Shown piece by piece: positions 1,699 to 60,877 of a DNA stretch of 64,000 nucleotides. This DNA comes from an uncultured Selenomonadales bacterium (lineage in GTDB: Bacteria > Bacillota > Negativicutes > Selenomonadales > Selenomonadaceae). Position 1 is the stretch's first letter, and each line of letters begins with the position of its first letter. A program made the position numbers and the translations under genes. Location: the NCBI GenBank assembly GCA_946536925.1, contig CAMNFC010000002.1, positions 1-64,000 on the forward strand. Direction: 5' to 3'. A model generated the notes under the pieces. That model was not told the DNA's origin. It made no database searches and worked only from the letters and a program-made list of their open reading frames with translations.

Positions 1699-3156
1699 TT
1701 ACTTGTCGAAGGGTTCGGGCGACTCTTTCGGCTCGGCGTAGATGTTTTCGACGGCGGCCGCCTCCAAAGATTTTGGCGAGGATTTTCCGCTCTGTTCGGC
1801 TTCGGCGTAAAGTTTGGCGTCAATCGTCACGGGAACACCCATTGCCTTTTCCAGCTGCGCGCGGCTCGTGTTGAAGTTGTAAATCGCGGCGTAGTAATTG
1901 TTGCGCGTCTCGACGACTTTTTCCTGCGCGTTCATGACGTTCAAGTTTGTGTCGACGCCTTCGACGTAACGGACTTGGGCGATGGCATATTCTTCTTCGG
2001 CTTTGTCCACGGCGGAGGCAGTCACCTCGATATTTTTTTCTGCGGTCTTGAGGGCGATGTACGCGCTGTGAACTTCAAGCTGAATCGTTTCGATCTGTTG
2101 CTTGGCCAGGCTCTCTGCGCGGGCTTGAGCGGCTTTGGCTTGATTGACGTTGGCGGAAGTTATGCCGTTGTCAAAAATATTCCATTGCATTTGCAGGCCG
2201 ACCGACCATTGCTCGGCGTTGTGGTTGGAGCCGAAAACATTTTCGCCGGACATGTTCCCTTGCACCACGGCACTCACTTGCGGGCGATATCCGCTCTTTG
2301 CGGCGTTGGTTTGAGCTTGAGCCTGTTTGAGCGCGTAGACCGCGGCGATTCCGTCGGGGCGATGAGCCAGCGCGTATTCCATGCAAGTTTCCTCGCTGAA
2401 GTTGTAGCGGACGAATTCGGGGTCGTCGCCGGTTGCAATCTCCGTGTTGACCGGCAAGCCCAAAATGTTGTTGAGTTGCGCCACGGCCGTTTGATAATTT
2501 CCTTGCGCGGTGTTCAAACTTTGGCGGCTGTTTGCAAGCTGAACGTTGGTGGCCAGCACGTCGGATTTTGCCACGGTTCCGACCTCATATTGAATCGTGA
2601 CGGTGTCCAAATGCTCCTGCAAAAGTCGAACGGCTTCTTCCTGAACGTTGACCAAAGACGCCTGCTGAAGAACTTGATAGTAAGCTTGCGCCGCCCGAAA
2701 CTTCACCGTCTGCCGAGAATTTTCCAAACTCAAGTCCGCCGAATTCAGAGCATAACGCGCCGCTTCCCGCTGATTTTCAAGCCGCCCGCCCGTATACAAC
2801 GGAAAGGACAAACTCGCGCTGTTGTAGTTTTCAAATTCGTAGGAAGGAAACAAATCTTGCCACGGCGAGCCTTTGTATTGGTCGTGCTGATCGCGTCGGC
2901 CGCTCCTGCGATAATATCTGCCGCCGATTCGATTTAGATTCGTCGACCAGCTGAATTGCAGACCCGACTGCCTGCGCACCGACGACAAATTCCAACGCGC
3001 GGACTCTCTCTCTTGTGTCGACTGTTCGATCAATCGATTGTTTTTCAACGCAAGGGCGATCGCCTCATCGCGCGTCAACGTCAAGCCTTCGGCGGCAAAA
3101 GTCGAGGAGGGGAGAAAGACACTCGCCGCCGCCAATGCCGCAAAAAATTTTTTCAT
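1699..3156 (-). CDS. TolC-family outer membrane efflux channel
   Basis: Outer-membrane and periplasmic tunnel through which type I secretion systems export their cargo. The 485-residue protein starts with a Sec signal peptide (ATG at 3156 after GAGGAG). It contains two copies of the outer-membrane efflux repeat, rich in Ala/Gln/Asn heptads (about residues 20-230 and 250-450). Typical phrases are 'SLSFPLYTGGRLENQREAARY' (trimmed: SLSFPLYTGG) and 'MQWNIFDNGI'. It is the last gene of the exporter operon, 12 bases after the second ABC gene, and is followed by a terminator. A TolC gene is strong evidence for an outer membrane in this Firmicute. The C-terminal tail after residue 440 is poorly conserved and charged. 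Confidence 0.92.
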   Translation of the reverse strand: MKKFFAALAAASVFLPSSTFAAEGLTLTRDEAIALALKNNRLIEQSTQERESARWNLSSVRRQSGLQFSWSTNLNRIGGRYYRRSGRRDQHDQYKGSPWQDLFPSYEFENYNSASLSFPLYTGGRLENQREAARYALNSADLSLENSRQTVKFRAAQAYYQVLQQASLVNVQEEAVRLLQEHLDTVTIQYEVGTVAKSDVLATNVQLANSRQSLNTAQGNYQTAVAQLNNILGLPVNTEIATGDDPEFVRYNFSEETCMEYALAHRPDGIAAVYALKQAQAQTNAAKSGYRPQVSAVVQGNMSGENVFGSNHNAEQWSVGLQMQWNIFDNGITSANVNQAKAAQARAESLAKQQIETIQLEVHSAYIALKTAEKNIEVTASAVDKAEEEYAIAQVRYVEGVDTNLNVMNAQEKVVETRNNYYAAIYNFNTSRAQLEKAMGVPVTIDAKLYAEAEQSGKSSPKSLEAAAVENIYAEPKESPEPFDK

Positions 3157-3168
3157 AAGTAATTCTCC

Positions 3169-5862
3169 TCAAGCAGTTTGTCTTTTGACCAAGTTTGCAA
3201 AAATTCCGCCGCGAGTAACCAGCTCGTCAAAGCCGCCGCTCTCGACGATTCGCCCCGCGTCCATGACCAAAATTCTGTCGCAATTTCGAATTGTGGAAAG
3301 TCTGTGCGCCACGATGATTCTCGTCGCGTTGAGGTTGTCCAAACTTTTCGTGACGATTGATTGCGTGCGATTGTCCAGGGCGGAGGTTGCCTCGTCGAAA
3401 ATCAAAATCGCGGGCTTGGTGACGAGTGCGCGGGCGATCAAAATTCTTTGTCGTTGTCCGCCGGAAATATTCGTTGAGCCTTCGCTGATAACGGTTTGCA
3501 TGCCCATTGGCATCATTGCGATATCGTCGGCAATTCCCGCGGCGGCTGCGGCTTCCCAGGCGTCTTCTTGAGTTAAAGGATTTGTGCCAATGATGTTTGT
3601 GAAGATGTCGCCCTGCATGAGCTGGCCGTTTTGGAGGACGACGCCCATTTGAGTTCTCACGGACGGCAAATTCAATTCGGCCAAGTCTTGTCCGTCGAAA
3701 TAAATTGAACCTTTGCGGGGGGTCTCGAAGCCCAAAAGAAGTCTGACGAGCGTGGACTTGCCGCAACCCGAACGCCCGACGATTGCCACGTTCTCACCGG
3801 CAGAAATTTTAAAGCTCACGTCGTGCAAAACGTCTCGACCTTCCGCGTAGCCGAACGTCACGTTGCTGACTTCAATCGCGCCGCTCAAAATTCCGGAGTC
3901 TGCTTTGTCGCCGACGCTTTCGGGAATTTCTTTGAGGATCGGGCGCAAATTTTCGATGTGCGGCTGAATCGCGAAGTATTGGCCGACGAGAGGAATGATT
4001 CCGTTGATCGTGGCGTTGAAAGATGAAAAGGCACCTTGGAAGGCGATGAACTGCGCGTAGGTTATGCCCTGAATCTGTTGGCCGTTGGGACCGACCTCGT
4101 TCATGCCGTAGACCGCGATGTAATAAAGGCACATGGTCAAGATAAACGGTTGGACGGAGCCGATGATCGAGTTGTAGTTTCCTTGCCAGCGCAATTTTAA
4201 ATTCCACTTCCACGTTTCGCCGAAAACTTCGCTCCACAACCAGAACGCTTGATTTTCCGCGCCGTGCTCACGGAACTTTGCGAGGCCTTTAAAAATTTGT
4301 TGGACGAGGCCGGCCTCTCGGTTGTTCGCGTCGATTAATTTTCTTTGGAAGCCGATGACGCGCCGATAAATAAAAGCGGTGATGATTGCATAGATAAACC
4401 AGACGACGACGGCCGCGGCCGTGAGCTTGAGGCTGTAGTAGCACATCAAAAAAATGCTCCAGAAGCTGAAGACGAAACCGAACAGCCCGCCGATAAAATC
4501 CGCGCTGACCAAACCTTTGATGACGTTGATGCCGCCCATGCGCGAGGCCAGTTCGCCGGAAGTAAATCGTCGGAAAAAACCCGTCGGCAAAGTGAGCAGT
4601 CGTCCCCAAAGCGCGGCCTCGGTCGCCATGTTCATTCGCGTGGTGATTCTCATCACGGCGATTGTTCGGACGATACCCAAGCTTGCCGTCGTGAAAGATG
4701 TGACCATGATGACTTGCGTGACGGTCGCCAAACCTTGTCGGTCGAGAATGGGGATGATGTCCGCGAAAATTGTTTCCGTAACCAGCGGCATTGCCAACGG
4801 AATAATTCCCGAAATTAAACTGATGACGATGACCGTGCGATAATCGGCGAACCAACACTGCTTGAAGATAAATTTCATCAGGTCGAGAATTTTTAACTCT
4901 TTGGCGGGGAAGCCCGCATAACATTCAAACGCGCTCTTGTCGATTTTTTTTGCGAGGTCGTCGGTGAGGGCGATACCTTCGGGGTGTTGGAGGTTGACGA
5001 GTTTATATTTGCCGGCGGCCAGAGGAATGAACGCCGACAAAATTTTTTCTTCGCCGAAGTAGCCGATGATGACGCCGCTGTCGTTTTTGTGCCAGTCCTC
5101 GACGAGTTCAATCAAGCGCATCTGCATGTTGCCCTTTTGAATCAAGCGACGAATCAAACGGATTTGGTCAAGCTTGCGCACGAGTTCCGCTTCGAGTTTG
5201 ATGTTGTCGGTCGGCATGTTCAACGCGACGGCCGCCCGCCGCACGATGAAGGTTGCCTCTTCCAAACGCACGGCGCGTTCGGTCGTCTCAGAATAAGTCG
5301 TGGTCTCTTCGCCGAGCAAATTTGAAATGGAGCTGTCCAAAAGTCTGCGTTGGTTGCGGGCGCGAACTTCGACGCGATTTGAAAATCTTTTGTCTTCGGC
5401 CGCGAACCGAACGCCCAGGAGCATTGAAAAAATTTCTTCGTTTTGACGGAAAGCCGCGGTCAAATCGATTGCGTCCTCCAAAACGGTGCCTTCCAGCCAC
5501 GTGATTAAAATATCGTCGCCCTTGTCCGCCAAAAGTCTGAGCCAGGGCAACTTTATCAGCTCGAAGAACCAGCGGCGCATGAAATTTTTTAATTCGTCGG
5601 GAGAAACTTCATCGAACGCAAAAAATTTTATCTGCGTGTCTTCGGCGGCATAGATTAGCGTTTCGGTCTCCTCGAATTCGTCAAGCAGAGGGAAGGCCGC
5701 TTCGCCCGCCGTCAGCTCAACCAAAAATTGTTGGCGGAAGGAACCCGCGGCTCTCGTCACGGCGTAAACTTCGACTTTGCCCGAATCAATCAGCGCGAGG
5801 CGTTCCACGTCCTGCAGCCGAAGTCGTTCGCCCGCCGTCAAAAATTTTTCAAAGCGGCTCAA
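3169..5862 (-). CDS. NHLM-type peptide exporter, second ABC permease/ATPase
   Basis: Second ABC half of an NHLM (nitrile hydratase leader microcin) peptide exporter. From the chosen start the protein is 897 residues. About 300 N-terminal residues have no recognised motif and may match the cyclic-nucleotide-binding-like region of this subfamily. A membrane domain follows, then an ATPase domain with Walker A 'GRSGCGKST', signature 'NISGGQRQR' and Walker B 'ILIFDEATSAL'. It has no C39 peptidase. The annotated start is TTG at 5862, eight bases after AAAGGAG (5871-5877). A longer frame opens at TTG 5883 but lacks a ribosome site. It overlaps the upstream peptidase/ABC gene by 14 bases. It probably pairs with that protein as a heterodimer. 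Confidence 0.88.
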   Translation of the reverse strand: MSRFEKFLTAGERLRLQDVERLALIDSGKVEVYAVTRAAGSFRQQFLVELTAGEAAFPLLDEFEETETLIYAAEDTQIKFFAFDEVSPDELKNFMRRWFFELIKLPWLRLLADKGDDILITWLEGTVLEDAIDLTAAFRQNEEIFSMLLGVRFAAEDKRFSNRVEVRARNQRRLLDSSISNLLGEETTTYSETTERAVRLEEATFIVRRAAVALNMPTDNIKLEAELVRKLDQIRLIRRLIQKGNMQMRLIELVEDWHKNDSGVIIGYFGEEKILSAFIPLAAGKYKLVNLQHPEGIALTDDLAKKIDKSAFECYAGFPAKELKILDLMKFIFKQCWFADYRTVIVISLISGIIPLAMPLVTETIFADIIPILDRQGLATVTQVIMVTSFTTASLGIVRTIAVMRITTRMNMATEAALWGRLLTLPTGFFRRFTSGELASRMGGINVIKGLVSADFIGGLFGFVFSFWSIFLMCYYSLKLTAAAVVVWFIYAIITAFIYRRVIGFQRKLIDANNREAGLVQQIFKGLAKFREHGAENQAFWLWSEVFGETWKWNLKLRWQGNYNSIIGSVQPFILTMCLYYIAVYGMNEVGPNGQQIQGITYAQFIAFQGAFSSFNATINGIIPLVGQYFAIQPHIENLRPILKEIPESVGDKADSGILSGAIEVSNVTFGYAEGRDVLHDVSFKISAGENVAIVGRSGCGKSTLVRLLLGFETPRKGSIYFDGQDLAELNLPSVRTQMGVVLQNGQLMQGDIFTNIIGTNPLTQEDAWEAAAAAGIADDIAMMPMGMQTVISEGSTNISGGQRQRILIARALVTKPAILIFDEATSALDNRTQSIVTKSLDNLNATRIIVAHRLSTIRNCDRILVMDAGRIVESGGFDELVTRGGIFANLVKRQTA

Positions 5863-8062
5863 CTTCTCGGCTCCTTTCTTCAATCAATCTGCGATACGCT
5901 CCGTCGTGTTGAATCATTTCTTTGTGGGTGCCGCGCTCGACGACGACGCCTTTTTCCAAAACGATGATCTCGTCGCAATCGCGAATGGTGGAAAGTCTGT
6001 GAGCAACGATCAAGCACGAACAGCCGCGCCGACGAATATTTTCCAAGACGGTTTGCTCGGTCATCGGGTCGAGGGCTGAAGTTGCCTCGTCCAAAACCAA
6101 CAGCGACGGATTGTTGGCCAAAGCCCGCGCGATTTCCAAACGTTGACGCTGGCCGCCCGAAAAGTTCAAGCCGCCCTCCGAAACTTCAGAATCGTAGCCT
6201 TTGTCGAGCTGCAAAATGTCTTCGTGGATGCAAGCGTCTTTGGCGGCCTGAATGATATCGCTGCGGCGGACGGAATCGTCGAAGAGCGAAAGATTTTGCG
6301 CAATCGTCCCGGTGATTTGGAAAACGTCCTGGTCGACGGCGGAAATTGAATTGACGATGACGGCGCGGGAAAGCTCGCGACGTTTGATACCGTCGAAACG
6401 AACTTCACCGCTCCATTCCTCGTAAATGCCCGTGACGATTTTTGAAACGGTGGACTTGCCCGAACCGCTCGCACCGACGACAGCCACCCAATGCCCCGGC
6501 TCGATGTGCAGAGAAAATTTATTTATCAGCGGCTTTTCCAGCGGGCTGTAGCCGAAATCGATATCTTTGAGTTCAAGTTCGCCGTTCAAGCGGGCGACAG
6601 GCTCGTCGGAAATTTTTTCTTCGCGGCAATTCAAATCGTCAATCTCATATTTGCGCACGTCGTTCAATCTTTGCATTTGCATTTCGGTTGATTGAAGAGT
6701 TGAGCCCAAACCGAGCAGCGCGTTGACGGGAGCCTGGAAACTTCCCATTAAAGATTGGAACGCGGTGAACATGCCGGCCGTCAGCGCACCTTCCATTATC
6801 GAGAAGCCGCCCAGCGTCATAATCAGCGCGCCGTTGATTCCTCCCAAAAGTGTGGGGATAATCGTTGCGGTCATCTGCCAGAGCGCGACGTCTTGGCCGG
6901 CCTTCAAAACTTTTGCACGATAGCCCGCCCACTTCGCGAAAAAATCTGCCTCGTTGCCGTTAGCTTTAATCGTCTCAATCATCATCAAGCCGTTCATCGC
7001 CGTGCCGTATTCTTTGCCCGCGTCCTGCTGAATCTTCATGTTCATATCGGTCAAATGTCGGCGGAGCGCGAAGAACATGACGATATTGATGCTCGAAAAA
7101 AATACGCCAATCAAAGTCAGCGTCACGTCATATTGGAGAAGCAAGAGCAAATAAAAAATCGCGACGAGGAAATTTAAAATTGCCAAGGCCGCCGGCCCGG
7201 ACAAAACGCCCGCGATCGATTCGTTGTAGTTGACGCGAGAGGCAACCTCGCCCGCGAAACGCTGATTAAAAAATTGCATGGGCAGACGGAGCAAATGCCA
7301 GAAGAAACTCGACGAATCGGCCAGCGTCAATTTTTGTTGCCAGCGCGTCAAGATAACGGCCTGCAACCATGTCATCACGCCGCAAACGACCCAAGAGACC
7401 GTCATGGCCAAGCAGAAGTTGAACATCCAGTCCGTGTGCTTTTTGGCGAGAATGTCGTCCAAAAAAATTTGACTGAAGACGGGCGACGCCAGCCCCGGAA
7501 TTATCATGCCGAAGTTGAGGAGCAAAATAAAAAACACCGCCCATTTGTCGCGGGAAAGTTTTATGGCAACGTCTTTAAAAATGTTGTAGCGTTCGCCTTC
7601 GGGTTTAAAATTTTCGTTCGGGACGACGCGCAGAGCCACGCCCGTGTACGACGTGCGGAACTCGTCCCATTTGACGGTGCGCCTGCCCATGGCCGGGTCG
7701 TTTAGATAAACCGTGTCGCCTTTGATGCCTTCGAGCACGACGAAGTGATTAAATTCCCAGTGAATGATCAGCGGGAAAACCATCAGCTCTTTTAATCTGT
7801 CGGCCGTCCAACGATAGCCGTTTGCGTCGCAGCCGCGGTTCCTGGCCGCACGAATGACGCAACTGGCTTTGGAGCCGTCGCGATTGACGCCGCACTCTTG
7901 ACGGAGTTTTTCCAGCGGCAACCAAAGATTGTAATGCGAAAAAATCATCGACAGGGAGGCCGCGCCGCATTCGGTCGCTTCCATCTGCAAAATCGTCGGG
8001 ACTTTGACGCGCGTGGTCGTCAGCCCGAAAAAATTTTTTATCTTATCAATGAAACTCATCAT
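5849..8062 (-). CDS. NHLM-type peptide exporter, C39 peptidase/ABC transporter
   Basis: Cuts the leader peptide after Gly-Gly and exports the core peptide using ATP. The 737-residue protein begins with a C39 peptidase domain, with catalytic Cys32 ('ATECGAAS'), His106 ('NHFVVL') and Asp122 ('NDPAMGRR'), so the triad is intact. A six-helix membrane domain (about 160-440) and an ABC ATPase follow, with 'GASGSGKST', 'NFSGGQRQR' and 'LLVLDEATSALD'. ATG at 8062 overlaps the adaptor stop codon (ATGA); a GTG at 8077 and an ATG at 8059 are alternatives. Being a functional leader peptidase, it predicts a double-glycine substrate somewhere in the genome; see the gene at 60483. Confidence 0.93.
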   Translation of the reverse strand: MMSFIDKIKNFFGLTTTRVKVPTILQMEATECGAASLSMIFSHYNLWLPLEKLRQECGVNRDGSKASCVIRAARNRGCDANGYRWTADRLKELMVFPLIIHWEFNHFVVLEGIKGDTVYLNDPAMGRRTVKWDEFRTSYTGVALRVVPNENFKPEGERYNIFKDVAIKLSRDKWAVFFILLLNFGMIIPGLASPVFSQIFLDDILAKKHTDWMFNFCLAMTVSWVVCGVMTWLQAVILTRWQQKLTLADSSSFFWHLLRLPMQFFNQRFAGEVASRVNYNESIAGVLSGPAALAILNFLVAIFYLLLLLQYDVTLTLIGVFFSSINIVMFFALRRHLTDMNMKIQQDAGKEYGTAMNGLMMIETIKANGNEADFFAKWAGYRAKVLKAGQDVALWQMTATIIPTLLGGINGALIMTLGGFSIMEGALTAGMFTAFQSLMGSFQAPVNALLGLGSTLQSTEMQMQRLNDVRKYEIDDLNCREEKISDEPVARLNGELELKDIDFGYSPLEKPLINKFSLHIEPGHWVAVVGASGSGKSTVSKIVTGIYEEWSGEVRFDGIKRRELSRAVIVNSISAVDQDVFQITGTIAQNLSLFDDSVRRSDIIQAAKDACIHEDILQLDKGYDSEVSEGGLNFSGGQRQRLEIARALANNPSLLVLDEATSALDPMTEQTVLENIRRRGCSCLIVAHRLSTIRDCDEIIVLEKGVVVERGTHKEMIQHDGAYRRLIEERSREVEPL

Positions 8063-9021
8063 CTGCTCCGTAGCCACTGGCTCAGCTTGTAGAAAACTTT
8101 TTCAATCGGCGGTTTGCGTTCGATGATGATTGAGCCCGTGCAAAAGGAGCCGGCCGTCACGGGTTTGTGTTCGCCGACTTTGGAAGTCCAAAGGTAGCCG
8201 CTCTTGTCCGCGGGATCTTTGACGAGATCGAAGACGACTTCCATCACCGAAGAGTTTTGAGCCTGAATAATCCATTGAGCAAGTTGCGCGTTGCCCAGGT
8301 GCTGTTGGATTCCGTTGATCGTTATGGGATATTGAGAGACGGAACGCACGACGCCGATCAAAGAGCCCGTTTGCGAAATGTCCGCGCCGTTGGGGGCAAG
8401 TTGAATCGACATGCCGCTTTGAACGCGTTTGCCTTTGTCGAGGGGAATGTACAAAAGCCCCGTCAAGTCCCCGCGATTTTGAGTGATGCGCACGGAACAA
8501 ATCGGCGAGCCGGGAGAAAGCATCGTGCCCACGTCGACCATAACCTCGTCGACAATTCCGTCGTAATCGCTGTAGACATCTTCGGCCACGTCCTGCTGAT
8601 ATCTTTTGGCGTCGTATTGATAGGCGCGACCCATTGCGTCTTTGTCGCCGGAAGCCAGACCCATTCCGTATTGAGCCATGCGAGTATCTGCGGCTTGAGC
8701 GGCCTGTTCCATGTGCGCTATCAAGTCACCTTTTTTAATCATCATGCCGGGGCGAACGTAAAGCCTGCCGATTTTTCCGCCGGCCGTGTGCGTCACGTTC
8801 ATAACGCCCGCCGAATCCATGATTAAACCCATGCCGTCCGCTTTGACGGTGAACGCGCCGTAAATCGACCAGAGGACAACCGCGAACAAAAGCACGAGCA
8901 CCGCAATCAACGCAATCCAGCTGACGGGCGTCGTTATTGGCAACATCGTATCGAGCTTTTCGGGCGAGCGAAGTTTATCGAGAGCTTCTTGGCTGAAAAT
9001 TTGACTGTTCTGCTGTCTCAT
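8059..9021 (-). CDS. NHLM exporter HlyD-family periplasmic adaptor
   Basis: Membrane-fusion protein bridging the ABC exporter and TolC. The 320-residue protein has one N-terminal transmembrane segment (about 36-58, 'WIALIAVLVLLFAVVLW'), then a lipoyl half-domain ('GKIGRLYVRPGMMIKKGD') and a second half ('YDGIVDEVMVDVGTMLSPGSP'). The hairpin between them is very short, as in the NHLM HlyD subfamily and unlike classical HlyD. It overlaps the upstream adaptor by four bases (ATGA at 9018-9021) and the downstream peptidase/ABC gene by four. It therefore belongs to a tightly coupled operon. Confidence 0.88.
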   Translation of the reverse strand: MRQQNSQIFSQEALDKLRSPEKLDTMLPITTPVSWIALIAVLVLLFAVVLWSIYGAFTVKADGMGLIMDSAGVMNVTHTAGGKIGRLYVRPGMMIKKGDLIAHMEQAAQAADTRMAQYGMGLASGDKDAMGRAYQYDAKRYQQDVAEDVYSDYDGIVDEVMVDVGTMLSPGSPICSVRITQNRGDLTGLLYIPLDKGKRVQSGMSIQLAPNGADISQTGSLIGVVRSVSQYPITINGIQQHLGNAQLAQWIIQAQNSSVMEVVFDLVKDPADKSGYLWTSKVGEHKPVTAGSFCTGSIIIERKPPIEKVFYKLSQWLRSR

Positions 9022-10190
9022 TTGCCGTCGCCTCCCGCAAAGGTCACTTCAACTTTTGTTCCGACTTCCAGGCCTTCTGCGTCCGAGGTAACGACAGTTT
9101 CGCCTTCGCGCAAGCCGGAAATAATTTCAACGTAGCGACCGTCATCCGCGCCCGTTCTGACCTGTCGACGTTCCAAAGTGTTTTCCGCCGTCACGACGAA
9201 GACTTCCGTCCGTTTTGTATCGATCATCGCGGAAAGAGGTGCCGTCAAAAATTTTCGCGTCTTGGAGGAAGTCAGAACCGCGCCGTTGTATGTTTGCTGC
9301 TCCAAAAGTCCGACGCGATTGTCAATTTCCAAAACGACTTTGCGCAAGCTCGCGGGCTCGTCCAAGGACGGCATGATTTCCTTGACAGTCACGTCAAAAA
9401 TTTGAGCGTCGCCGCGGTTGCCGGCCGCGTATTCCGTGTCGTAAGCTTTGCGCAAAATTTGGTTGTTCGTGAAGGTGAGCTGAGCCGTGTCGCCGACGGA
9501 AAATCTTTGCGCGTTTTTGTCGTCAACGGGCATGGAGAAAAGTAATCTGGAAAAATTTCCGACGAGAGCAAGCGGCGTGCCGGCCTGAACGTACGCGCCC
9601 TGCTGACGATAGACGATTAAAATTTCGCCGTCGATTGGAGCCAAAACTTCTTGCCGCGCGGACTGAACCAATAATTGCTCCTTAATCGTTTTCGCTTCTT
9701 TGAGAGCCGCTTCGGAGGCAAAATACGCAGCCTCGGCCTCGTCGAATTTTTCAATGGAAGTTGCGTCGCGTTCGCGCAGCCGGGTGTAACGTTTGTAATT
9801 ATTTTTTGCGTTGGCCAGTTGCGCTTCGGCCTTGGCGATGGAGCTGTCCGCCTGCTGAATTTTTAAAGGGATATCGTCGTTGACGAGCGTGAAGATGACT
9901 TCGCCGCTCTCGACGTGGGAATTTTTTGAGACGGAAACTTTTTCGATTCGCCCGTCGATGAGCGCGATTGCGTCGGCCATATCTTCCGAATAAAGATTGA
10001 TCGCGTCCAAAAATAATTTCGGGTGCATGTCGCGCATTTGAACTTTGTCGCCCTGCAGAGGGATTGTCCGTTGCTCCATGCGCTCGGTGATTTGATTTTC
10101 GCCGGTTTTGTTGAGCCACGCGCCGTAACCAATCATCGCAATAGCAAAAAGCAAAATCAGCACGAGCCCGACGATGTAAAGTCTTTTCAT
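9018..10190 (-). CDS. periplasmic adaptor (HlyD/RND-type membrane fusion protein)
   Basis: Second adaptor of the exporter operon, 390 residues from ATG at 10190 (seven bases after GGGAGG). It has one N-terminal membrane anchor (about 5-24), a lipoyl domain split by a coiled-coil hairpin rich in Ala, Glu and Lys (about 95-150), a beta-barrel ('PVDDKNAQRFSVGDTAQLTF') and a membrane-proximal domain ending in 'GLREGETVVTSDAEGLEVG'. That layout is closer to RND/MacA adaptors than to NHLM HlyD. Two adaptors in one exporter operon is uncommon. This longer one may be the true contact to TolC, which is inference. First gene of the operon behind the promoter at 10223-10251. Confidence 0.87.
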   Translation of the reverse strand: MKRLYIVGLVLILLFAIAMIGYGAWLNKTGENQITERMEQRTIPLQGDKVQMRDMHPKLFLDAINLYSEDMADAIALIDGRIEKVSVSKNSHVESGEVIFTLVNDDIPLKIQQADSSIAKAEAQLANAKNNYKRYTRLRERDATSIEKFDEAEAAYFASEAALKEAKTIKEQLLVQSARQEVLAPIDGEILIVYRQQGAYVQAGTPLALVGNFSRLLFSMPVDDKNAQRFSVGDTAQLTFTNNQILRKAYDTEYAAGNRGDAQIFDVTVKEIMPSLDEPASLRKVVLEIDNRVGLLEQQTYNGAVLTSSKTRKFLTAPLSAMIDTKRTEVFVVTAENTLERRQVRTGADDGRYVEIISGLREGETVVTSDAEGLEVGTKVEVTFAGGDGK

Positions 10191-10222: not shown

Positions 10223-10251
10223 AGTATAAATCATCGCCAAAACTTTTTCAA
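10223..10251 (-). promoter_or_regulatory. promoter of the exporter operon
   Basis: On the minus strand TTGAAA (10251-10246) is separated by 17 bases from TATACT (10228-10223). The -35 box lies across the stop codon of the radical SAM gene. The exporter operon can thus be transcribed independently of the maturase gene, although no terminator separates them. Confidence 0.7.
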
Positions 10252-11594
10252 TCGAGAAAATTTTCTTCGGCGAGCTTGGCCTGAACGTAGATGGCGCACT
10301 CCAAACGTTTCTTTTGAATTTCGCAGCCGACCTCGTAAGGCTGACGGATGTCCCCGTGAAAAAGATCCGCGTTGGCGTGGCAGCCGCCGGAACAAAAAAA
10401 TTTCGCCCAACACGAGCGGCACTTGGGCTTGTTCAAAACGTGCGACTCGCGAAAATATTTCAGCCAGTGCCGAGAATTTTTTTCCACGCCGTCAAAAATA
10501 TTTCCGAGCTTGTAACGTTCGCGGCCGACGAATTGGTGGCAAGGATACAGGTCGCCGTTTTCCGCCACGGCAAAATATTCGTGACCCGCGCCGCAGCCCG
10601 CCAGTCTTTTGGCGACGCAAGGGCCGTTGGACAAATCAACGTTGAAGTGGAAGAAAAAAAATCCGCGGCCTTCTCTTCGACGAGCAAGATAAGCTTCAGT
10701 CAGGCGATCGTATTCGGCAAAAATTTTCGGCAGATCTTCTTCCGTCAACGCGAGCGGCGAATCTTTCAGGACGACGGGCTCGACGGAGATGATGTCAAAG
10801 CCCGCGTCGTGAATGCTCAAGACGTCGGCGGTGAAGTCCAAATTTTTTTTCGTGTACGTGCCGCGCAGATAATAATTTTCTCCGTTGCGGCTCTCGACGA
10901 ATTTTTTAAAATTTTTCAGCACGCGGTCGTAACTTCCTCGGCCGGCGATGTCGGGTCTCATCGCGTCGTGAATTTTTTTTCGGCCGTCCAAACTCAGCAC
11001 GAGTGAAATTTTATTTTCGTTGAGCCAGGCAGAAATTTTTTCGTCGAGCAAAATTCCGTTGGTCGTCAGCGTCAGCTTGAAAATTTTTCCCGTGTCGCGC
11101 TCGCGTTGACGGACGTATTCGGTTACGGCTTTGACCGTGCGGAAATTTATCAGAGGTTCGCCGCCGAAAAAATCAATCTCGCAGTGTTTGCGCAAGCCCG
11201 AATTTTTGATGATGAAATCGACGGCCGCGCGCCCGACTTCCTCCGACATAATCGCGCGATGCCCGAAACTTCCTCCGTCGCCGAAACAATATTTGCAGCG
11301 CAGGTTGCAATCTTGGGCGACCATGAGGCAAAGACTTTTCACCACGCCGCGCGCCGCAAAAGTCGGAGGCACGTCGATATCCTCGGCAAAAAGTTCGCCC
11401 GCGTCAATCAGCTCGTGAAGTTCGGACAAAATTTCGGCGGTGTCGACGTCGGGATATTTCGCCAAAATTTTTTCGTCGTTGGAGCCGTCGAAGTCGTCCA
11501 AAATTTTGAAAGTCTTTTCGTCGACGAGATGAACCGCGCCGCTGTTTACGTCGAGCAAAATAAAATCGTCGCCCTGCTTAAATTTGTGGATCAT
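10248..11594 (-). CDS. SCIFF-type radical SAM/SPASM peptide maturase
   Basis: Radical S-adenosylmethionine enzyme of the family that forms Cys thioether (sactionine-like) bonds in SCIFF (six Cys in forty-five) peptides. The 448-residue length matches the family. The N-terminal peptide-binding region 'MIHKFKQGDDFILLDVNSGA' (residues 1-20) is highly characteristic. The SAM cluster is C96-x3-C100-x2-C103, followed by 'DFFGGEPLINF'. The C-terminal SPASM domain carries two further Fe-S clusters ('GPCVAKRLAGCG', 'LYPCHQF', 'KCRSCWAKFFCSGGC', 'GCEIQKKRLEC'). ATG at 11594 follows GAGGAG. Upstream are an HD-domain gene and hisZ; downstream is the peptide exporter. No SCIFF precursor is visible next to it, which is unusual for the family. 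Confidence 0.88.
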   Translation of the reverse strand: MIHKFKQGDDFILLDVNSGAVHLVDEKTFKILDDFDGSNDEKILAKYPDVDTAEILSELHELIDAGELFAEDIDVPPTFAARGVVKSLCLMVAQDCNLRCKYCFGDGGSFGHRAIMSEEVGRAAVDFIIKNSGLRKHCEIDFFGGEPLINFRTVKAVTEYVRQRERDTGKIFKLTLTTNGILLDEKISAWLNENKISLVLSLDGRKKIHDAMRPDIAGRGSYDRVLKNFKKFVESRNGENYYLRGTYTKKNLDFTADVLSIHDAGFDIISVEPVVLKDSPLALTEEDLPKIFAEYDRLTEAYLARRREGRGFFFFHFNVDLSNGPCVAKRLAGCGAGHEYFAVAENGDLYPCHQFVGRERYKLGNIFDGVEKNSRHWLKYFRESHVLNKPKCRSCWAKFFCSGGCHANADLFHGDIRQPYEVGCEIQKKRLECAIYVQAKLAEENFLD

Positions 11595-15927: not shown

Positions 15928-15954
15928 GATAATCTCCTCCGTTCAAAAAATTTT

Positions 15955-16152
15955 TCAAGCGTAGGGAAGCATTTTCCTCACGCGCGCTTTGTCCGCTGCC
16001 GAAGCAAGCGTCGCCTTGCGGAGATTTCTCTTGCGTTTGCGGGTCTTCTTTTCCAAGATGTGGCTCTTGTATGCTTTATTGCGTTTGAATTCGCCGCTGC
16101 CGGTCACGTGGAAACGTTTAGCTGCTGCGCGGTGTGTCTTGATTTTGGGCAA
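15955..16152 (-). CDS. rpmI: 50S ribosomal protein L35
   Basis: 65-residue basic ribosomal protein beginning '[20 protein letters not shown]', which is the family signature. The initiation codon is TTG at 16152, six to eight bases after AAGGAGGGG. Its first 35 bases overlap the end of infC in another frame, so the two genes are tightly coupled. The usual rpmI start is ATG. Confidence 0.96.
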
Positions 16153-16714
16153 CGTTGTCCCCTCCTTTTGTCTGAGTAGTTTTCTTTGTCTTTTGCGCCT
16201 TTTGTGCCTTAGGAGAGAGAATCATCGTCATGTTTTTGCCTTCCAATTTGGCGGCACGCTCGACCGTCACGACATCTTCCAGAGCCTTGGCAAGTTTGTT
16301 CAAGACTTCGGCGCCCAATTCGGGGTGAGAGAGCTCGCGCCCGCGGAACATGATCGTCACTTTGACTTTGTTGCCTTCTTCAATGAAACGCTGAGCGTTT
16401 TTTAATTTGACTTCAAAGTCGTGCTGTTCGATGTTGGGGCGGAGTTTGACTTCTTTGACCGTGATGATTTTTTGCTTCTTGCGAACTTCCTTTTCGCGTT
16501 TTTGCTGCTCATAACGATACTTGCCGAAGTCCATGATGCGGCAAACGGGCGGTCTGGCTTTGGGCGCGACTTCGACCAAATCCAAATGTTTTTCTTCGGC
16601 CAATCTGAGCGCGTCCCGCGTGAGCATGACGCCGAGCTGTTCGCCGTTTGCGTCGGTTACTCTGACTTCGCGGATACGAATCTCTTCATTGATTCTCAAA
16701 GTGTCCCTGCTAAT
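16118..16714 (-). CDS. infC: translation initiation factor IF-3, probable AUU start
   Basis: Binds the 30S subunit and checks the start codon during initiation. The conserved body runs from '[20 protein letters not shown]' through '[19 protein letters not shown]' and '[10 protein letters not shown]', with a 25-residue Lys/Gln/Thr tail. No ATG, GTG or TTG lies at a usable distance from AGGAGG (16724-16729). Nine bases after it is ATT (16714-16712), giving M-S-R-D-T-L-R-I-N and a 198-residue product. An AUU start is the classic self-control feature of infC in other bacteria. A TTG at 16699 is the alternative, but it is too far from the ribosome site. A frame open to 16927 crosses the leader and is not credible. 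Confidence 0.9.
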
Positions 16715-16741
16715 CGAAATACACCTCCTGCGGCGCGTCGG

Positions 16742-16830
16742 AAAAAAATTAAAGGCGGCCGATAAGCCACCCGCGATTCCCACAGAAAAATTCGTTGCAA
16801 CCGCGCCAACACATTCAAGGTCGGCGGGTG
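16742..16830 (-). promoter_or_regulatory. infC leader with terminator/antiterminator structure (L20-leader type)
   Basis: On the minus strand, arms at 16766-16772 and 16754-16760 (GGTGGCT with GGCCGCC) form a stem followed by TTTAATTTTTTT, a terminator placed about 30 bases before the infC ribosome site. Upstream, CACCCGC (16830-16824) is exactly complementary to GCGGGTG (16774-16768), which overlaps one terminator arm. The two pairings exclude each other, as expected for attenuation. L20-mediated control of infC operons is known in Firmicutes; that L20 is the ligand here is inference. Confidence 0.6.
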
Positions 16831-16860
16831 AGAAGCGCAGGCTCCTGCTTAACGCGCCAA

Positions 16861-16890
16861 AGTTTATCACAGCGGCTTTGATTCTGTCAA
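16861..16890 (-). promoter_or_regulatory. promoter of infC-rpmI-rplT
   Basis: On the minus strand TTGACA (16890-16885) is followed after 18 bases by TAAACT (16866-16861). It gives a leader of about 140 bases before infC. Confidence 0.6.
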
Positions 16891-16957
16891 TAAAATTTTT
16901 TTTATCATACTTTCTTTGCTTGCCCAAAGACGGGCGGCCTGAAAAATTTCGTTGAAT

Positions 16958-60411: not shown

Positions 60412-60482
60412 AAAATCCTGTAACAAATCCTTCTAATCAACATATAAGGAACAGAAAATAAATTTTAAAGGAGAAAACAGAA

Positions 60483-60803
60483 ATTAAGAACGAAATTTTG
60501 AATTTTGAGCCATTGGACGGCGTTTCGGGCGGAAATATTAACGACAGATCGCTTTTGGCACTTTTTTTTAAATGTTATTACGATGTCAACGGCGGAGTGC
60601 ACGGTTCCGTTATAGATTACTCCAAAACTGATTTTTTAAAAGTAATGCAGACTTTGTGCGATAAAGCCGGAATCGAATACAAACCGGACGAAAAAGTCCT
60701 CGATCAATACAAAATCAACGGTCAGTGGCGCGACGGCACCTGGATGATTAAAAATCAGCAAGAAACAATCGATTTCTTTGACAAAAAGCTCGGAATCAAA
60801 TAA
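60483..60803 (+). CDS. candidate double-glycine-leader secreted peptide, AUU start
   Basis: The frame begins nine bases after a perfect AAAGGAG (60467-60473) at ATT 60483; the nearest other start, TTG 60498, is 24 bases away. The product is 106 residues. Its first 17, MKNEILNFEPLDGVSGG, place Leu, Leu and Val at -12, -7 and -4 before Gly-Gly, the exact pattern cleaved by C39 peptidases. The core of about 89 residues is hydrophilic with 'LLALFFKCYYDVNGGVHGS', two Cys and 'WRDGTWMIKNQQETIDFFD'. No modification enzyme is adjacent. It is the best candidate in the window for cargo of the exporter at 3-10 kb. It has its own weak promoter (TATAAG at 60443-60448) and a terminator. Confidence 0.6.
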   Translation: MKNEILNFEPLDGVSGGNINDRSLLALFFKCYYDVNGGVHGSVIDYSKTDFLKVMQTLCDKAGIEYKPDEKVLDQYKINGQWRDGTWMIKNQQETIDFFDKKLGIK

Positions 60804-60816
60804 ATCAGCGAAAAAA

Positions 60817-60846
60817 AACCCTTCGGCGCGTGTCGGAGGGTTTTTT
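60817..60846 (+). terminator. terminator after the double-glycine peptide gene
   Basis: CCCTTCG (60819-60825) with CGGAGGG (60834-60840), one T-G pair, then six T residues. Confidence 0.8.
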
Positions 60847-60848
60847 CA

Positions 60849-60877
60849 TTGACGGAGATAAATTTTTTTGCTAAAGT
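60849..60877 (+). promoter_or_regulatory. promoter of the secreted HAD phosphatase gene
   Basis: TTGACG (60849-60854), 17 bases, TAAAGT (60872-60877). Confidence 0.6.

What the first reader, a model, noticed from the sequence alone, without database searches (positions are those of the whole stretch)
60483..60803. Possible cargo of the C39 exporter: small gene with a double-glycine leader and AUU start
The leader MKNEILNFEPLDGVSGG matches the C39 recognition pattern (hydrophobic at -4, -7 and -12, then Gly-Gly). The window also encodes a C39 peptidase/ABC exporter with an intact triad. No leader-bearing gene lies in the exporter operon, so a remote gene may supply it. The start codon appears to be ATT, which gene finders would miss, truncating the leader. 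The core is larger (about 89 residues) than typical bacteriocins and matches nothing I recognise.
Basis: partly seen in the sequence, partly recalled or inferred. Interest (0 to 1): 0.75.

Follow-up and report, generated by a model that had tools for sequence, protein, structure and literature searches.

The report
Dispersed leader-tagged secreted proteins in Quinella
A small gene in an uncultured rumen bacterium belongs to a large scattered family of small proteins that share an export tag and often a promoter, and that are probably cut and exported by one dedicated transporter; this copy has an unusual start codon.

Summary
The gene is real. At 60483-60803 an open frame with AAAGGAG nine bases upstream begins with ATT and encodes a 17-residue double-glycine leader plus an 89-residue core. 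It is one of 16 leader ORFs in this Quinella-like genome. Of 85 distinct leader genes examined, 84 have ATG; this is the only exception. The start assignment is well supported, but ATT is a one-gene oddity: rare AUU initiation, early decay or an assembly error.

The link to the exporter is supported. It is an NHLM system with intact C39 Cys/His/Asp; the genome's other two C39-like ABC domains lack Cys and His. In three related genomes leader genes sit in or at the head of the exporter operon. Leader genes and exporter co-occur, with six counter-examples. New here: cargo genes share a TGTAAC-N18-TATAAG promoter of the kind ECF sigma factors use. A matrix from seven other promoters ranks 60420-60449 first in the window.

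The core folds confidently (pLDDT 91) but matches no family or solved fold. Function is unknown; a secreted competition factor is my guess. New variant of a known kind.

The parts
60420..60449 (+). promoter: GTAACAAA ... CATATAAG, the motif shared by cargo genes of this genome; read as an ECF-sigma-type promoter
   Evidence: best matrix hit in the window, 27.8 bits, next 17.9; matrix made from 7 other promoters, this site not used
60467..60473 (+). Shine-Dalgarno AAAGGAG, 9 bases before the ATT
   Evidence: sequence; same motif and spacing in paralogues
60483..60485 (+). ATT start codon
   Evidence: stands where paralogues have ATG; 84 of 85 leader genes have ATG, this one not
60483..60533 (+). 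17-residue double-glycine leader (M)KNEILNFEPLDGVSGG
   Evidence: profile E 4.9e-10; position-by-position match to 117 leaders
60534..60803 (+). 89-residue core and stop; predicted compact helix-helix-hairpin-helix domain
   Evidence: AF2 pLDDT 91, pTM 0.82; homologues 36-49% identical over the core
60806..60852 (+). stem-loop with T run, probable terminator
   Evidence: fold -21.5 kcal/mol, z -4.5; the consensus scan did not list it
5849..8077 (-). NHLM ABC1: C39 peptidase / permease / ATPase, proposed to cut and export the protein
   Evidence: TIGR03796 975.8 bits, cut-off 853.3; catalytic residues
3169..5883 (-). NHLM ABC2 permease / ATPase
   Evidence: TIGR03797 733.2 bits, cut-off 709.4
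8059..9021 (-). NHLM HlyD-type adaptor
   Evidence: TIGR03794 217.8 bits, cut-off 156.2
9018..10190 (-). periplasmic adaptor (RND_mfp family), first gene of the exporter operon
   Evidence: TIGR01730 174.3 bits; ATG read
1699..3156 (-). TolC-like outer membrane channel
   Evidence: PF02321 217.3 bits

Best explanation
The gene encodes a small secreted protein, one of a scattered paralogous set in Quinella. Its own promoter, of ECF-sigma type, transcribes a single-gene message that ends at a terminator. The ribosome starts at AUU, placed by a good Shine-Dalgarno. The leader docks on the C39 domain of the NHLM exporter encoded 50 kb away, is cut after Gly-Gly, and the core passes through ABC transporter, adaptors and TolC-like channel and folds outside as a small helical/hairpin domain. 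Shown here by sequence: family, leader, promoter match, exporter with catalytic residues, operon linkage in three relatives. Inferred: cleavage, secretion, ECF control, use of AUU. Guess: the mature protein acts in competition with other rumen microbes, microcin-like.
For: 16 leader ORFs in the own genome. Leader profile hits at E<=1e-4 in 49 of 66 genus genomes, up to 25 per genome, and in 22 of the 123 other family genomes, mostly 1-2 and at most 6. Leader genes in or at the head of the exporter operon: G027, 161 bp after ABC2; G004, before the adaptor; G026, motif - leader gene - TolC - adaptor - HlyD - ABC1 - ABC2. Leader present in 39 of 46 genomes with full ABC1 against 10 of 20 without, Fisher p 0.005. 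Only C39 ABC with Cys and His seen in the genome. No NHLP precursor found in 66 genomes (no positive control). Promoter; 143 sites against 27 for the reversed pattern over 66 genomes, rank correlation with leader count 0.51. ECF sigma genes in or beside the exporter operon in G036, G037, G063, and next to a motif site in the own genome (the G036 and G037 genes named by eye).
Against: G011, G015, G018, G021, G045 and G061 have leader genes but no NHLM component in the assembly; G018 is rated 98% complete. Of the genomes with full ABC1, 7 of 46 lack such leaders at E<=1e-4. Genomes of one genus are not independent, so p values are optimistic. One homologue (L082) has no leader. In the window's -10 element CG is CA. 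12 of 32 sampled motif sites have no leader match within 160 bases. No immunity-like gene was recognised next to this gene, which speaks against a classical bacteriocin.
Confidence: 0.72

Rival explanations
1. The gene is an early pseudogene: a paralogue that lost its ATG and is no longer made in useful amounts, in a family with fast turnover.
For: Only 1 of 85 leader genes without ATG. Decayed relatives exist: a C-terminal remnant in G011, fragments at contig ends in G014, a leaderless copy in G026.
Against: Frame, leader, promoter, Shine-Dalgarno and terminator are intact. No excess of changes at columns conserved in the other four homologues (3 of 23; the others 2-5 of 22-25). infC in the same window also reads best with an ATT start.
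Confidence: 0.3
2. ATT is a single-base assembly or consensus error and the living gene has ATG.
For: It is an assembly of 123 contigs rated 76% complete; 84 of 85 leader genes have ATG.
Against: No direct evidence of error; the rest of the gene is clean. Reads were not available.
Confidence: 0.25
3. The protein is a colonisation or biofilm factor like the EbfG proteins of Synechococcus rather than an antibacterial.
For: EbfG1-4 are small double-glycine proteins secreted with the help of a C39 transporter and needed for biofilm (PMC4997328, abstract and passages). Folded core and no immunity gene fit.
Against: No sequence relation tested or shown; the many divergent cores per genome look more like an arsenal.
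Confidence: 0.3
4. The core is a substrate for a peptide-modifying enzyme (RiPP), such as the radical SAM enzyme beside the exporter.
For: Window 10251-11594(-), directly upstream of the exporter operon, is a SCIFF-type radical SAM/SPASM maturase, TIGR03974 582 bits, cut-off 425. NHLM-type precursors belong to RiPP systems (PMC2887384, passages).
Against: SCIFF maturases act on their own Cys-rich peptide (recalled); the core has only two Cys and is predicted to fold as a domain. No such gene was recognised beside the exporters of the relatives listed, though those genes were not family-searched.
Confidence: 0.07

Closest known systems
NHLM export systems (TIGR03796, TIGR03797, TIGR03794)
   Same: The exporter in the window meets all three models.
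   Different: No nitrile-hydratase-like (NHLP) precursor was found; the cargo carries a short GG leader on a roughly 90-residue folded core, mostly away from the exporter.
EbfG1-4 / PteB of Synechococcus elongatus (PMC4997328)
   Same: Several small GG-leader proteins served by one C39 transporter.
   Different: ebfG1-4 are four cotranscribed genes; here up to 25 mostly dispersed genes per genome with an ECF-type promoter; no sequence relation shown.
Class II microcins and bacteriocins with double-glycine leader (PF10439)
   Same: Leader logic: hydrophobic -4, -7, -12 and GG; C39 exporter.
   Different: Family score not reached; core larger and predicted globular; no immunity gene recognised beside it.
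CTB family bacteriocin (NF038167)
   Same: Weak match in 7 of 13 members, in the leader region where the range was shown.
   Different: 18.8 bits where seen, cut-off 32; the finding's own protein does not match.
infC and sigR genes with non-canonical starts under IF3 control (PMC5472188)
   Same: ATT (or GTC) start codon.
   Different: Here it is a secreted cargo gene, and use of the codon is inferred.

Membership tests
C39-processed double-glycine precursor | leader with hydrophobic residues at -4, -7, -12 and GG at -2/-1 | tested here: met
   V -4, L -7, L -12, GG; 117 leaders compared
C39-processed double-glycine precursor | exporter with catalytic C39 domain in the same genome | tested here: met
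   window 5849-8077(-), Cys, His, Asp present
C39-processed double-glycine precursor | cleavage after GG and secretion | not testable with these tools
   needs protein work
NHLM exporter | scores over TIGR03796, TIGR03797 and TIGR03794 cut-offs | tested here: met
   975.8/853.3, 733.2/709.4, 217.8/156.2 bits
NHLP precursor (TIGR03793) | nitrile-hydratase-like leader region | tested here: not met
   hmmscan of the protein lists no such family at E<=1; 0 of 66 genomes, though the control rang nowhere
Class II bacteriocin, PF10439 | gathering score of the family | tested here: not met
   protein: no match at E<=1; 2 of 13 members match at best E 0.0098
Class II bacteriocin, PF10439 | killing activity and immunity gene | not testable with these tools
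   neighbours are argG (divergent) and a HAD-type hydrolase
CTB family bacteriocin NF038167 | cut-off score | tested here: not met
   no match for the protein; 18.8 of 32 bits for one paralogue
ECF-sigma regulon | shared -35/-10 promoter of ECF type | tested here: met
   shared motif; that AAC and CGT elements are typical of ECF promoters is recalled
ECF-sigma regulon | transcription by the named sigma factor | not testable with these tools
   genomic neighbourhood only
known fold | significant structural match of the core | tested here: inconclusive
   PDB and BFVD: none at E<=0.001; best Z 3.2

The most novel reading that the evidence does not exclude
Quinella carries an ECF-sigma-controlled secretome of small folded proteins with a new fold, served by one NHLM exporter that no longer handles RiPPs; the AUU start puts this one member under IF3 control, so that it is made only when initiation stringency drops.
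Probability: 0.1. Interest if true: 0.8.

Novelty: new variant of a known kind. Interest (0 to 1): 0.55.

Why it matters
Quinella is uncultured and was found more abundant in some low-methane sheep (PMC9585023, start of abstract). A dedicated secretome of up to 25 detected leader genes per genome, many under one promoter type, would be a concrete, testable means by which it acts on other rumen microbes. It also gives NHLM exporters a class of cargo other than RiPPs, and shows that leader genes can be missed or mis-started by gene finders.

Tried and rejected
SUMO-like core: the profile of the five close homologues matched SUMO chains (one chain at E 2e-4, the others at E 0.28 or worse). The AF2 model and fold searches gave no support; treated as chance.

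A TTG start at 60498 (the one an ORF caller gives): rejected, no Shine-Dalgarno at the right distance and the conserved Glu -14 would be lost.

The other C39-like proteins as the processing enzyme: two ABC proteins on contig C97 lack Cys and His. The C39-like protein of G018, G021, G061, G056 and G057 has a signal-like N-terminus and lies in a housekeeping neighbourhood (both judged by eye).

Conserved gene neighbourhood of the cargo gene: not found; several homologues lie in arrays of leader genes beside unrelated genes.

Plasmid relatives: one weak partial hit, E 0.7. Fold search of a second core (L079 2664-2909, pLDDT 88, similar order of helices and hairpin): no match at E<=0.001.

Papers: searches. 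In PMC9585023 a word search found 'bacteriocin' 0 times; in PMC13289728 'Quinella' and 'Selenomonas' 0 times. I did not read these papers whole. That the family is undescribed rests on these searches and on Pfam and NCBIfam only.

Full report
What is there. The stop-to-stop frame 60462-60803 holds, from an ATT at 60483, a 106-residue protein: a 17-residue leader ending in GG and an 89-residue core. AAAGGAG ends nine bases before the ATT. No ATG or GTG lies in the frame before GG; a TTG at 60498 would cut the leader to 12 residues.

Is it more than chance? A search of the own genome finds paralogues, and a leader profile finds 19 matches at E<=10, 17 of them at E<0.003. Reading these out gives 16 distinct leader ORFs, this one included. 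Fifteen have ATG. Over all loci then held, 85 distinct leader genes scored over 20 bits; 84 have an ATG within 34 codons before GG and only this one has none. Paralogue C62 has AAAGGAG-N9-ATG and begins MKNE; the finding has AAAGGAG-N9-ATT and begins (M)KNE.

Organism. The nearest named relatives are Quinella sp. 1Q7 and Selenomonadaceae MAGs from rumen, reticulum and caecum of ruminants. That it is Quinella-like is an inference: locus L079 of Quinella sp. 1Q7 and the contig of genus member G004 have the same length and the same match.

Distribution. The finding's own core family occurs as full-length, leader-bearing genes in G023, G004, G017 and G014. G026 has a copy that starts at the core without a leader, behind a second leaderless core-like ORF. 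G011 has a C-terminal remnant. The leader profile at E<=1e-4 is found in 49 of 66 genus genomes (up to 25 genes) and in 22 of 123 other genomes of the family, mostly with one or two hits and at most six.

Exporter. The window operon is adaptor, NHLM HlyD, ABC1, ABC2 and TolC-like protein. ABC1 has Cys, His and Asp of C39; the two other C39-like ABC domains of the genome have neither Cys nor His. Leader genes in the exporter operon: G027, 161 bases after ABC2; G004, ahead of the adaptor; G026, first gene of the operon, behind the shared promoter motif. I looked at the exporter neighbourhood of 11 relatives (L121, L122, L129, L170, L171, L172, L175-L180 being 12 stretches with part of an operon); only these three had a leader gene directly in line. 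Co-occurrence: leaders in 39 of 46 genomes with full ABC1 and in 10 of 20 without; counting fragments of the system, 43 of 52 and 6 of 14. The six exceptions are G011, G015, G018, G021, G045 and G061. Incomplete assemblies may explain some, but G018 is rated 98% complete. NHLP precursors: none in 66 genomes, though that search had no positive control.

Promoter. Upstream of the own leader genes a motif GTAACAAA-N13/14-GTATAAG recurs; later genes of arrays and three further genes (L084, L090, L093) do not show it. The stricter pattern has 5 sites in the own genome and none reversed: 4 precede leader genes, the fifth precedes a 62-residue ORF directly after a sigma factor gene (sigma-70 regions 2 and 4). 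With the looser pattern the own genome has 9 sites: 6 before leader genes, one before that ORF, one before a 186-residue lipoprotein-like ORF, one near a contig end. Over 66 genomes there are 143 sites against 27 for the reversed pattern. Of 32 sites in 30 sampled loci, 20 are followed within 160 bases by a leader match of at least 8 bits, four of these under 15 bits. A matrix from seven other own sites puts 60420-60449 first in the window by 10 bits. Sigma-factor-like genes lie in the exporter operon of G036 and G037 (named by eye) and beside it in G063. ECF promoters with AAC and CGT elements are recalled knowledge.

Core. AF2 on five homologues: pLDDT 91, pTM 0.82, helix 2-16, helix 34-45, hairpin 58-66, helices 68-73 and 75-86. 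A distant paralogue gives a similar order of elements; the two models were not superposed. No match in PDB or BFVD at E<=0.001, none in Pfam or NCBIfam over cut-off.

The start codon. In the same window infC reads best from ATT with AGGAGG nine bases before (my reading of the frame). E. coli infC starts with ATT and IF3 represses non-canonical starts (PMC5472188, passages). So AUU initiation is possible here, but the codon is unique among the 85 leader genes and may be decay or an error. The core shows no excess of changes.

Judgement. Exported GG-leader cargo of the NHLM exporter: likely. Function: open.

Noticed in passing
window 10251-11594 (-): SCIFF-type radical SAM/SPASM maturase (TIGR03974) directly upstream of the exporter operon; the one Cys-rich short ORF listed in the window (15933-16085) was not followed up.
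   Followed up: partly
window 16121-16927 (-): infC (TIGR00168) whose best start is an ATT with AGGAGG nine bases upstream.
   Followed up: partly
L136 809-1750; L176 3009-3876; L162 1288-1476: a conserved 60-64 residue ORF ending like SLxxLDxVAAAGNP, behind a sigma factor gene and the cargo promoter motif in L136 and L176; possibly a second leader type or a partner of the sigma factor.
   Followed up: partly
L082 9737-10276: two tandem cargo-like cores without leaders in G026; cytoplasmic use or decay unknown.
   Followed up: partly
L078 3752-8335 and 10419-11801: two RTX-repeat proteins before and a family-41-like glycosyltransferase after a cargo array.
   Followed up: no
L095 (contig C97): two ABC proteins with C39-like domains lacking Cys and His, with an adaptor-like gene between them.
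   Followed up: partly
L124, L125, L126, L127, L128: a separate C39-like protein with a signal-like N-terminus in a conserved housekeeping neighbourhood.
   Followed up: no
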